DNA of 64,000 bases from Rikenellaceae bacterium (GTDB taxonomy: Bacteria > Bacteroidota > Bacteroidia > Bacteroidales > Rikenellaceae), in contig CABIXK010000007.1 of assembly GCA_902362705.1 (NCBI GenBank), forward strand, positions 37,753-101,752, read 5' to 3'. Every line of letters begins with the position of its first letter. The stretch's first letter is position 1. Below, in pieces: positions 34,246-64,000 of the stretch. The notes beneath the pieces are model-generated. The model saw only the letters and a program-made list of their open reading frames with translations, was not told the DNA's origin and did no database searches. A program made the translations under genes and the position numbers.

Positions 34246-36438
<2,193 letters not shown>

Positions 36439-45500: not shown

Positions 45501-46046
45501 ATGGCTGTTAAAATTCGTCTGGCACGCCACGGTAAGAAGGGCTACGCCTTCTATCATGTCGTTGCCGCAGATAGCAGAGCGCCGCGTGACGGTAAATTCA
45601 TCGAGAAGCTGGGTACCTACAACCCCAACACGAATCCTGCTACGATCGATCTGGACTTCGAGAAAGCCCTGAATTGGTTACTCAAAGGCGCACAACCCAC
45701 CGACACCTGCCGTGCCATCCTCTCCTACAAGGGCGTGATGATGAAGAAGCACCTGCTGGGCGGCGTCGCCAAGGGCGCCTTCACCGAGGCCGAGGCCGAG
45801 GCCCGCTTCAACAAGTGGCTCGAGGGCAAGAGCGGCCGCATCGAGGCCAAGACCAACAAGCTCGCTTCGGACGCCAAGTCGGCCGAGAAGGCTCGTCTGG
45901 CCGCCGAGGCCAAGGTGAACGAGGAGCGTGCGAAGGCCATCGCCGAGAAGAAGGCCGCAGCCGAGGCTGCCGCCCGAGAGGCCGCCGAGGCTGCTGCTGC
46001 TGCCGAGGCTCCCGCCGAGGAGGCTTCGGAGGCCGCTGCTGAATAG
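45501..46046 (+). CDS. rpsP: 30S ribosomal protein S16
   Basis: 181 aa. Residues 1-85 are the S16 core ([43 protein letters not shown]). The remaining 95 residues are a Glu/Ala/Lys-rich tail, a known feature of Bacteroidetes S16. Followed by a terminator, an unusual promoter-like array and rimM. Confidence 0.97.
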
Positions 46047-46065
46047 CACGATCCCCCGTCGGAAT

Positions 46066-46100
46066 AAAACGGCAGACGCACGATGCGCCTGCCGTTTTTT
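46066..46100 (+). terminator. Terminator of rpsP
   Basis: AAAACGGCAG pairs with CTGCCGTTTT around an inner CGCA/TGCG stem, followed by six T. Confidence 0.88.
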
Positions 46101-46189
46101 CGTCCCGGGGCCGGCCGCAGCGCCGACCCCGAGGGAAGGGGCTGCGGGTCGTCCGAGCGGCTCCGCCCCGGCAGCGACGAACCTCGCGG

Positions 46190-46605
46190 GCGCTCGACTT
46201 TCCGTATCTTTGGATTCGCCCAAGATACATCGCCTCGGCAAAATGCGAGCGAACCCGGCTTATCCGTATCTTTGGCTGCGCCGAAGATACTCCATCTCGG
46301 CAGAAACAAACCTTGCTGACGCTCGACTTTCCGTATCTTTGGCTGCGCCCAAGATACGTCGCCTCGGCAAAATGCGAGCGAACCCGGCTTATTCGTATCT
46401 TTGGCTGCGCCGAAGATACTCCATCTCGGCAGAAACAAACCTTGCTGACGCTCGATTTTCGTATCTTTGGCTTCGCCGAAGATACGTCGCCTCGGCAAAA
46501 TGCGAGCGAACCCGGCTTATCCGTATCTTTGGCTGCGCCGAAGATACGTCGCCTCGGCAAAATGCAAATAAATTTGCTTTTGCCCTCGGCTTATCCGTAT
46601 CTTTG
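46190..46605 (+). repeat. Array of seven promoter-like hairpin repeats upstream of rimM
   Basis: TATCTTTG, a perfect Bacteroidetes -7 box, occurs at 46205, 46267, 46334, 46396, 46462, 46524 and 46598. Steps are 62, 67, 62, 66, 62 and 74 bases, so two unit types alternate in a 128-129-base higher-order repeat. In the first six units the box lies in one arm of an 11-bp hairpin (GTATCTTTGGC, loop TGC, GCCGAAGATAC). Unit linkers resemble the rimM leader. The last unit is the likely real promoter. Confidence 0.9.
46573..46605 (+). promoter_or_regulatory. Promoter of rimM
   Basis: TTTG (46573-46576), 21 bases, TATCTTTG (46598-46605). rimM starts at 46624. This final unit of the array lacks the hairpin arm and has the best -33 box. 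Confidence 0.75.
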
Positions 46606-46623
46606 CAAAAACGAACCTTCGCA

Positions 46624-47163
46624 ATGAAAACTCCCGCAGGCAGGATCAACCGCCTTTTCGGCACCGAGGGGGGCGTGATGCTCTCGCTCTACGCCCCGTT
46701 CCCCGACGACTTCGCCCCCGCGACCACCCCCCTCTTCGTCACGATCGACGGCCTGGAGGTGCCCCTCTGGTGCAGCCGCTTCGAGCGGCGCGGGCAGACG
46801 GGCGCCGTGGCGGCGTTCGACGACCTGGACACCGAGCGCCGGGCCGAGGAGTTGCTGGGGCTCGAGTTCCGCATCGAGGTGACGGAGGAGGCAGCCGACG
46901 ACGACGAGTTCTACATGGAGGACCTCATAGGCTTCGAGGCCGAGGCCGAGCTGATCGCCGAGGAGCAGGGGGCCCACCGCACCGTGCACGGACGCCTGGC
47001 GGACTACTACGACAGCGAGGCCAACCCCCTGTTCGAGCTGGAGCTGGAGGGGCGCGCGGTGCTGGTGCCCGCCGCAGAAGAGTTCATCGCCCGCATCGAC
47101 TTTGAGGGCCGGCGCATCAAGTTCGTACTGCCCGAAGGGCTCATCGACCTGCAAACGCGATGA
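46624..47163 (+). CDS. rimM: Ribosome maturation factor RimM
   Basis: 179 aa. N-terminal beta-barrel with GRINRLFGTEGGVML and a C-terminal PRC-barrel with MEDLIGFEAEAE, VLVPAAEEFI and GLIDL, the RimM pattern. Binds S19 and helps mature the 30S head. It sits near rpsP, as in many bacteria, although the array and a terminator separate them. Overlaps the GNAT gene by ATGA. Confidence 0.93.
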   Translation: MKTPAGRINRLFGTEGGVMLSLYAPFPDDFAPATTPLFVTIDGLEVPLWCSRFERRGQTGAVAAFDDLDTERRAEELLGLEFRIEVTEEAADDDEFYMEDLIGFEAEAELIAEEQGAHRTVHGRLADYYDSEANPLFELELEGRAVLVPAAEEFIARIDFEGRRIKFVLPEGLIDLQTR

Positions 47164-54266: not shown

Positions 54267-54340
54267 CACACCCGGCACACACCCGGCACACACCCGGCAC
54301 ACACCCGGCACACACCCGACACACACCCGACACACACCGG
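54267..54340. repeat. 11-bp tandem repeat
   Basis: Four copies of CACACCCGGCA then two of CACACCCGACA and a partial copy, in exact tandem, between ruvX and def. Confidence 0.92.
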
Positions 54341-54374
54341 GCCGCCCGCCACTCCGGCACGACTCGCCCCGCCC

Positions 54375-63611: not shown

Positions 63612-64000
63612 ATTCAAAGCATCCGGCGTATAACGATCGGCCCCTCCCCCTGCATATCCTGCCGACAGCCCGCATAAGCTCCGGCTGCACCCGGCTGCGC
63701 AACCCGGATCGGCCGACACGAACGATCGCAAAGCCTCCAACCGCCGAGACGACACACCGGCGCCCCCGCTTCGCCCCGCCTCACCTCGCCCCGCCGCCTC
63801 CAGACCATTTTTCAGCCCCGAATGCCGCACGGCAGGATTCCGATGACCACCGGCCACTTCCCGACCCGCACAAGCGATTGCAGGGCCACACAACGGCCGA
63901 AACACGGACCAGCCACGGCGCAGACGATCCGACGCCGGCACCTCGGCTCCACCCCAGCTCCCGGCGCCGGCTGCCCGACCTCGGTCCGCCCCCCCCCCCC
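63612..64000. other. C-rich noncoding end of the window
   Basis: No credible gene; C-rich on the plus strand and ending in ten C. A homopolymer of this kind at the window edge may reflect a contig end. Confidence 0.5.

What the first reader, a model, noticed from the sequence alone, without database searches (positions are those of the whole stretch)
46190..46605. Seven promoter boxes in an alternating hairpin array upstream of rimM
The sequence shows TATCTTTG seven times, spaced 62, 67, 62, 66, 62 and 74 bases. TATCTTTG matches the Bacteroidetes -7 consensus. Six copies lie in one arm of an 11-bp hairpin. Two linker types alternate, so units have expanded as 128-129-base pairs. The last unit has a good -33 TTTG and looks like the functional promoter; the linkers resemble the rimM leader. 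The array could have grown by copying the promoter. It could act as a sigma-factor decoy, a set of alternative starts, or a phase-variable expression control for rimM-GNAT-mnmA.
Basis: partly seen in the sequence, partly recalled or inferred. Interest (0 to 1): 0.72.

Follow-up and report, generated by a model that had tools for sequence, protein, structure and literature searches.

The report
Promoter-box-targeted mobile element array
The repeated promoter boxes in front of rimM are one site of a small, apparently mobile DNA element that occurs many times in some Alistipes gut bacteria, inserts at a gene's promoter box and seems to bring its own promoter, so it may change how ordinary genes are switched on without breaking them.

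Summary
In detail: seven TATCTTTG boxes at 46205-46605, spaced 62/67/62/66/62/74; 0.42 expected in the whole window. The unit is not private to rimM: it belongs to a dispersed family of elements (inner length 58-78 bp, median 66), found by one query in 61 of 180 genus genomes, with up to 88 core-pattern hits in one genome. Orthologous promoters in three sibling species show filled and empty sites: the empty site holds one 8-bp -7 box, the filled site box-unit-box between conserved flanks. At two sites exactly 8 bp separate the flanks when empty. A (T/C)TTG lies 17-24 nt before the right-hand box in 63 of 67 units, and two hairpins covary. I read this as promoter-targeted mobile promoters. The moving enzyme is unknown: no Y1 (REP/RAYT-type) transposase in 26 genomes. 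In the window only the last unit is intact; upstream units are decayed and were multiplied as 128-129-bp dimers. I found no evidence for phase variation or a sigma decoy; neither could be tested directly.

The parts
46161..46204 (+). degenerate 5' end of the array (tail of a B-type unit)
   Evidence: 129-bp repeat copy starts at 46161; BLAST self match
46205..46212 (+). -7-type box 1 (TATCTTTG)
46213..46266 (+). unit 1, type A, decayed: no intact hairpin 2
   Evidence: sequence; weak fold of 46226-46266, z -1.52
46267..46274 (+). box 2
46275..46333 (+). unit 2, type B, decayed hairpin 2
   Evidence: weak fold of 46288-46333, z -0.55
46334..46341 (+). box 3
46342..46395 (+). unit 3, type A, decayed
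46396..46403 (+). box 4
46404..46461 (+). unit 4, type B, decayed
46462..46469 (+). box 5
46470..46523 (+). unit 5, type A, decayed
46524..46531 (+). box 6
46522..46548 (+). hairpin 1 of the last unit (12 bp, includes box 6)
   Evidence: -9.8 kcal/mol, z -3.47, 0 of 200 shuffles as good
46532..46597 (+). unit 6, full-length element; the only intact one in the array
   Evidence: query 46524-46605 matches 61 of 180 genus genomes
46556..46584 (+). hairpin 2 of the last unit: 7 bp, bulged T, 5 bp, 4-nt loop
   Evidence: z -3.68, 0 of 200 shuffles as good; same form is common in the family
46573..46576 (+). TTTG, putative -33 element, 21 nt before the last box
   Evidence: sequence; family-wide position
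46598..46605 (+). box 7, putative functional -7 element of rimM
   Evidence: 18 nt before the rimM ATG; start near 46610 inferred from the box position -12 to -5 given in PMC9723704 (passage)
46606..46623 (+). rimM leader, 18 nt
   Evidence: same length behind a TACCTTTG box in L001 (counted by eye)
46624..47163 (+). rimM
   Evidence: PF24986 PRC_RimM, E 2.5e-10; 77% identity to L001
46066..46104 (+). terminator-like hairpin plus T run behind rpsP
   Evidence: inverted repeat I1 46066-46098 and sequence

Best explanation
The array is one site of a dispersed family of short non-coding elements in Alistipes that insert at the -7 promoter box (TAnnTTTG, apparently preferring CG-TATCTTTG) of genes. 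Insertion leaves a box on each side of a unit of about 66 bp (shown by filled/empty pairs). The unit's 3' hairpin places a (T/C)TTG about 20 nt before the right-hand box, so each insertion should rebuild a complete Bacteroidetes-type promoter next to the old leader (anatomy shown, activity inferred). Because every insertion leaves boxes that could be targets again, and because repeats recombine, units can stack (inferred). In the window, older units lost an intact hairpin 2 and were multiplied as A+B dimers; the last, intact unit is the likely rimM promoter (inferred). How units move is not known. Covarying hairpins with an unpaired base suggest that a recombinase or transposase acting in trans reads a folded single strand (inferred).
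For: Dispersed, many copies: 10 of 12 genomes, 61 of 180, 27 of 268 Rikenellaceae genomes with 10 or more hits of AGATACNNNNNCTCGGNA, backwards control 0-2 per strand (my count). Filled/empty orthologues: G174C4:113957 against G173C5:173119 (exactly 8 bp between flanks; downstream gene ileS-like by its N-terminus) and G174C2:132697 against G173C1:81607 (8 bp); L124 against G173C1 near 257700 (73-bp difference); G173C2:291276 and G173C3:33990 against G174; rimM filled in L107/L108, empty in L111; G173C1:95304 and G174C2:123021, with further indels. (T/C)TTG 17-24 nt before the right box in 63 of 67 units, mononucleotide-shuffle mean 5.3. Hairpin 1 apical pair: 62 of 67 Watson-Crick against 54% in shuffles, 0 of 5000. 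Hairpin 2: mean 10.1 bp against 3.6 in mononucleotide shuffles, 45 of 66 with 10 bp or more. Same-strand ATG ORF within 250 nt of the right box in 52 of 56 array pieces, median 29 nt. Five copies in G175 are 94-96% identical to the window's last unit, although its RimM is about 61% identical.
Against: No mobilising enzyme identified (uninformative). No experiment on promoter activity. The 67 units were collected by a box-to-box pattern that also asks for part of the hairpin-1 arm, so conservation of those letters is not independent evidence; units are related, so covariation counts are not counts of independent events. ORFs on the other side and strand are also common (34 of 56), and crude gene calls put the next ORF on the same strand in only 30 of 37 arrays. 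Some sites carry half units or remnants (G173C1:69030; G173C3 near 63966), and 21 of 66 units have a hairpin 2 of under 10 bp by my script. Where a single-unit piece has a box other than TATCTTTG, the two boxes agree in 2 of 10 and differ in 8, so an 8-bp target duplication is not proven. The window's own empty site in the same species was not seen; L001 lacks the array but is only 86% identical.
Confidence: 0.8

Rival explanations
1. A purely local tandem array: the rimM promoter was copied in place by slippage or unequal exchange, with no mobile family.
For: The 128-129-bp dimers are 74-90% alike to the reference copy, which is local amplification; BLAST found no second array in the window.
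Against: The same unit is present in many copies in other species at other genes, with filled/empty sites.
Confidence: 0.05
2. REP/REPIN-like elements moved by a Y1 HUH transposase (RAYT), which acts on folded single-stranded hairpins.
For: Hairpin 2 in many units (lower stem 6-9 bp in 42 of 66, one unpaired base, upper stem 4-5 bp in 58 of 66, 4-nt loop in 60 of 66) resembles the long-hairpin geometry given for REPs in PMC6006769 (passages); insertion next to a fixed short motif recalls IS200/IS605.
Against: PF01797 found in 0 of 12 and 0 of 14 other genomes, while 5 of 14 control genomes ring; GTAG/GTGG occurs in 0 of 67 units on the + strand and 4 of 67 on the - strand.
Confidence: 0.12
3. 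Cassette-like site-specific recombination: a tyrosine recombinase uses the -7 box as a short core and a folded hairpin as partner site, so units integrate and stack as in an integron array.
For: Box-unit-box arrays, hairpins with an unpaired base, different hairpin 2 at the same orthologous site (L145/L147; G173C4:25965 against G174C1:397306). Matches to the integron-integrase model below its cut-off occur in 16 of 16 genomes examined. CTnDOT's integrase is recalled (from memory; one search found no paper with the motif) to prefer GTAnnTTTGC targets.
Against: 0 of 16 genomes pass the integron-integrase cut-off, and weaker matches are as common in five genomes without core-pattern hits (G009, G014, G015, G018, G019). 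A free double-stranded circle of about 74 bp is hard to form (recalled).
Confidence: 0.2
4. Sigma-factor decoy or phase-variable control of rimM by unit number.
For: Six extra -7 boxes stand upstream; tandem repeats can change number.
Against: Upstream units lack an intact hairpin 2 and, by eye, a TTTG at the -33 position; several related genomes have no array or one to two units at rimM. No strain comparison was possible.
Confidence: 0.06

Closest known systems
Mobile promoters / promoter propagation (concept recalled; the original paper was not seen, only papers that use the terms were listed)
   Same: Intergenic repeats that carry a promoter and occur upstream of unrelated genes.
   Different: Here the insertion point is the -7 box itself, a box lies on both sides of the unit, and the family has two defined hairpins.
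REP/REPIN elements with RAYT transposases (PMC6006769 and PMC8049555; passages)
   Same: Short intergenic palindromes, tens of copies per genome, single or clustered, hairpins that can have a bulge.
   Different: No Y1 transposase found, no GTAG/GTGG on the + strand of 67 units, and each unit carries a promoter-like -33/-7 layout.
Integron attC sites (PMC2727003; abstract and passages)
   Same: Folded hairpins with extrahelical bases, little sequence conservation, serial arrays.
   Different: No gene cargo seen in the units printed, no integron integrase over cut-off, many dispersed sites rather than one platform.
MITEs (mentioned for Porphyromonas gingivalis in PMC5771137; passages)
   Same: Short non-coding repeats that look mobile.
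   Different: No terminal inverted repeats: inverted identity of the 12-nt ends is below the shuffled value, no terminal run of 5 or more in 67 units; the target is a promoter box.

Membership tests
Bacteroidetes primary-sigma promoter | -7 TAnnTTTG and -33 TTTG (passage of PMC7366714) | tested here: met
   Last unit: TTTG 46573-46576, 21 nt, TATCTTTG 46598-46605; family: TTTG 38 of 67, (T/C)TTG 63 of 67. The -7 box is built into the selection of units
Bacteroidetes primary-sigma promoter | transcription start just downstream of the box | not testable with these tools
   no transcript data for this organism
Mobile element | presence/absence at orthologous sites with conserved flanks | tested here: met
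Mobile element | duplication of the target site | tested here: inconclusive
   Single-unit pieces with a box other than TATCTTTG: boxes equal in 2 of 10 (G173C1 site 5 TATTTTTG; L068 TACCTTTG), different in 8. L108, outside that set, has TAACTTTG on both sides
REP/REPIN | associated Y1 (RAYT) transposase gene | tested here: not met
   PF01797: 0 of 12, 0 of 14; draft genomes, so a gap in the assembly is possible
REP/REPIN | GTAG/GTGG tetranucleotide at the hairpin foot | tested here: not met
   0 of 67 units on the + strand, 4 of 67 on the - strand
MITE | terminal inverted repeats | tested here: not met
   mean inverted identity of 12-nt ends 1.8 against 2.9 shuffled; 0 of 67 with a terminal run of 5 or more; same with boxes included
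Integron cassette array | integron integrase | tested here: not met
   TIGR02249 over cut-off in 0 of 16 genomes; 16 of 16 have weaker matches
Phase-variable promoter | unit number or orientation differs among strains | not testable with these tools
   no genome is held for the window and the collection holds one genome per species
Known structured RNA | Rfam match | tested here: not met
   46000-46800: only RF02241 at 18.6 bits (gathering score 45), - strand, over the rpsP terminator

The most novel reading that the evidence does not exclude
A new class of minimal mobile element: a folded single-strand cassette of about 74 nt, without terminal inverted repeats or a Y1 transposase, that a trans-acting recombinase inserts at promoter boxes (perhaps where the open transcription bubble exposes single-stranded DNA), replacing the promoters of housekeeping genes across a bacterial genus while keeping them expressed.
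Probability: 0.35. Interest if true: 0.87.

Novelty: new variant of a known kind. Interest (0 to 1): 0.68.

Why it matters
If right, a number of housekeeping promoters in Alistipes are not simply inherited with their genes but are replaced by a mobile promoter that targets the -7 box. That gives a natural experiment in promoter replacement, a marker for strain comparison and, if the enzyme is found, possibly a precise promoter-insertion tool. It also warns that repeats of this kind are easily taken for gene-specific regulation.

Tried and rejected
RAYT/REP origin: PF01797 searched in 12 and 14 different genomes, none found. IS91-type Y2 transposase (PF04986): none in 16, but no control genome rang either, so this shows nothing. 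Integron integrase: only matches under the cut-off, as frequent in five genomes without core-pattern hits. MITE: no terminal inverted repeats. Phage or plasmid carriage: plasmids no match; four records of the phage collection match, of which the three I opened encode chromosomal-type proteins by eye (a symporter, ThiL-like, pyruvate-kinase-like) and are probably mislabelled Alistipes DNA, though one of them (L229) also has an ORF that looks like a tyrosine recombinase; the fourth was not opened. Known RNA: none. First comparison of G173:C1 with G174:C1: not syntenic. Crude ORF-based gene calls gave many 'inside' calls because repeats form ORFs; supplemented. A paper on a conjugative transposon with its att site in ppdK (passages) did not bear on this. 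Literature: I found no paper on such elements in Alistipes in the listings (open-access library only; bioRxiv and most subscription papers not held; 10 to 20 rows of longer lists were shown).

Full report
Observation. The window holds seven exact TATCTTTG boxes upstream of rimM, at the stated spacings, far above chance. The array starts near 46161 with a degenerate tail and ends at 46605, 18 nt before the rimM ATG at 46624. Types A and B alternate and repeat as 128-129-bp dimers. The last unit (46532-46597) is different: it is full length, folds into two strong hairpins as single-stranded DNA (z -3.47 and -3.68) and has a TTTG 21 nt before the last box.

Where it is. RimM is up to 77% identical to relatives, and the 60 loci found are all Alistipes or Rikenellaceae by record title. 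L001, the closest of the 12 relatives compared (86% DNA over about 8 kb aligned), has no array at rimM but has a TACCTTTG box the same 18 nt before its ATG (counted by eye). No genome is held for the window itself.

Coordinates. In my scripts G173C1 starts at base 150001 of contig C1 of genome G173 (add 150000); the other G173 and G174 pieces start at base 1 of their contigs.

It is a dispersed family. The array matched 10 of 12 Alistipes genomes, up to 45 matches each (at most 40 candidates per genome were scored; G006 and G009 had none). The last unit matched 61 of 180 genomes of the genus (at most 5 candidates scored per genome, so copy numbers there are lower bounds). A core pattern gave 88 hits in G175, 55 in G200, 50 in G172, 43 in G173 and 37 in G174, with 27 of 268 Rikenellaceae genomes at 10 or more (my count), while the backwards control gave 0 to 2 per strand (121 of 268 have at least one hit, a part of which will be chance). 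A stricter, different pattern gave 2 of 393 genomes drawn evenly from the order, one of them G001 itself. Five copies in G175 are 94-96% identical to the window's last unit although G175's RimM is about 61% identical, which fits movement or strong constraint.

It inserts at promoter boxes. I compared G173, G174 and G176 (87.6-91.8% identical around rimM). At G174C4:113957, in front of an ileS-like gene, G174 has box-unit-box and G173C5:173119 has a single box; 8 bp lie between the matching flanks of the empty site. A two-unit site (G174C2:132697) is likewise empty in G173, with 8 bp. Further filled/empty pairs: L124 against G173 (73-bp difference), G173C2:291276 and G173C3:33990 against G174, rimM filled in L107 and L108 and empty in L111, and G173C1:95304 and G174C2:123021 with additional indels. 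Not all sites are simple. Some are filled in both species with the same element (L119/L144). Some carry a different element at the same site (L145/L147; G173C4:25965 against G174C1:397306). One looks like a remnant after deletion (G173C3 near 63966), and G173C1:69030 is a half unit. RimM has an element in at least three lineages: the window, G172 (L102) and G173/G176.

Target preference. In the 1.6 Mb of G173 and G174 then in hand, 312 other TAnnTTTG boxes precede an ORF by my criteria; 67 have TC at nn and 57 have CG before the box. Of 34 leftmost boxes of array pieces (from all species fetched) not preceded by an element tail, 24 have TC and 22 have CG. Either the element prefers CG-TATCTTTG or the left box is partly element-derived. 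Left boxes other than TATCTTTG still stand next to the arm GAAGATAC (TACCTTTG with GAAGATAC six times), which suggests that the left box belongs to the target. Of 10 single-unit pieces with a box other than TATCTTTG, the two boxes agree in 2 and differ in 8. Whether the box is a true target duplication is open.

What a unit contains. The 67 distinct units have an inner length of 58-78 bp, median 66; the window's own A units (54 bp) fall outside the pattern. The set was collected by a box-to-box pattern that also asks for part of the hairpin-1 arm, so those letters are built in. Of the 67, 63 have (T/C)TTG 17-24 nt before the right box, mostly at 20-21, against 5.3 in mononucleotide shuffles; 38 have TTTG against 2.7. 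This matches the -33/-7 layout in PMC7366714 (passage), which also says that no -33 motif was found in Flavobacterium johnsoniae. Hairpin 1 is made of the left box plus the start of the unit; its apical pair is G-C or A-T in 62 of 67 against 54% when shuffled (units are related, so these are not independent events). Hairpin 2 varies widely in sequence (47 forms by my script) but tends to keep its form: one unpaired base (T in 49 of 66), upper stem of 4-5 bp in 58 of 66, 4-nt loop in 60 of 66, lower stem of 6-9 bp in 42 of 66. One unit gave no stem, and 21 of 66 have under 10 bp in all.

Position. A same-strand ATG ORF of 60 aa or more starts within 250 nt of the right box in 52 of 56 array pieces (the window's array counts three times), median 29 nt; an ORF on the other side and strand is present in 34 of 56, so chance ORFs are common in these genomes. 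Pfam names domains of downstream genes in nine relatives tested: DnaG zinc finger, RuvB, DAP epimerase, class I tRNA synthetase, GIY-YIG, a GTPase, a tRNA-binding domain, an FAD-binding domain and an anticodon-binding OB fold. Gene names such as aspS, uvrC and ileS are my reading.

How the window's array arose (inferred). Units A and B lack an intact hairpin 2 and, by eye, a TTTG at -33; they were multiplied as dimers, presumably by recombination. Only the last unit keeps all features, so it is the likely rimM promoter. Transcripts should start near 46610, from the box position -12 to -5 given in PMC9723704 (passage).

How it may move (inferred). The covarying hairpins with an unpaired base point to recognition of a folded single strand, as for REP/IS200 ends (PMC6006769, passages) or attC sites (PMC2727003, passages). 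But PF01797 was absent from 12 genomes and 14 others, 26 in all, while it rang in 5 of 14 controls; no integron integrase passed its cut-off (0 of 16); there are no terminal inverted repeats and no GTAG/GTGG on the + strand. Membership in those families is therefore not claimed.

Verdict. Phase variation and decoy functions have no support here and were not directly testable.

Noticed in passing
L086; G174:C6 near 35169-35380; G173C1 272694-272989: A second dispersed repeat, roughly AGCGAAGATGACNNNCGAAAGCAAGATAACGGTCTACCGCGCTAATAAAAATTTCG, also ends at a TATCTTTG box in places and is often joined to the first family.
   Followed up: partly
G173:C1 near 245304 (site 2): Hairpin 1 is present in inverted form at this site, as if the small palindrome had flipped.
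   Followed up: no
L229, L230, L231 (MT838894, MT838590, MT836480): Records labelled Bacteriophage sp. from human faeces carry these units in front of chromosomal-type genes; probably bacterial DNA.
   Followed up: partly
window 54267-54342: An 11-bp tandem repeat (CACACCCGGCA), 6.9 copies, 95% matches.
   Followed up: no
window 45928-47163: A mechanical ORF reads from within rpsP through the whole array into RimM in frame (411 aa); it could be miscalled as a long RimM.
   Followed up: no
L001 upstream of rimM: The closest relative has a different GC-rich repeat (GCACGGCAAGGTCCGG...) between rpsP and rimM.
   Followed up: no
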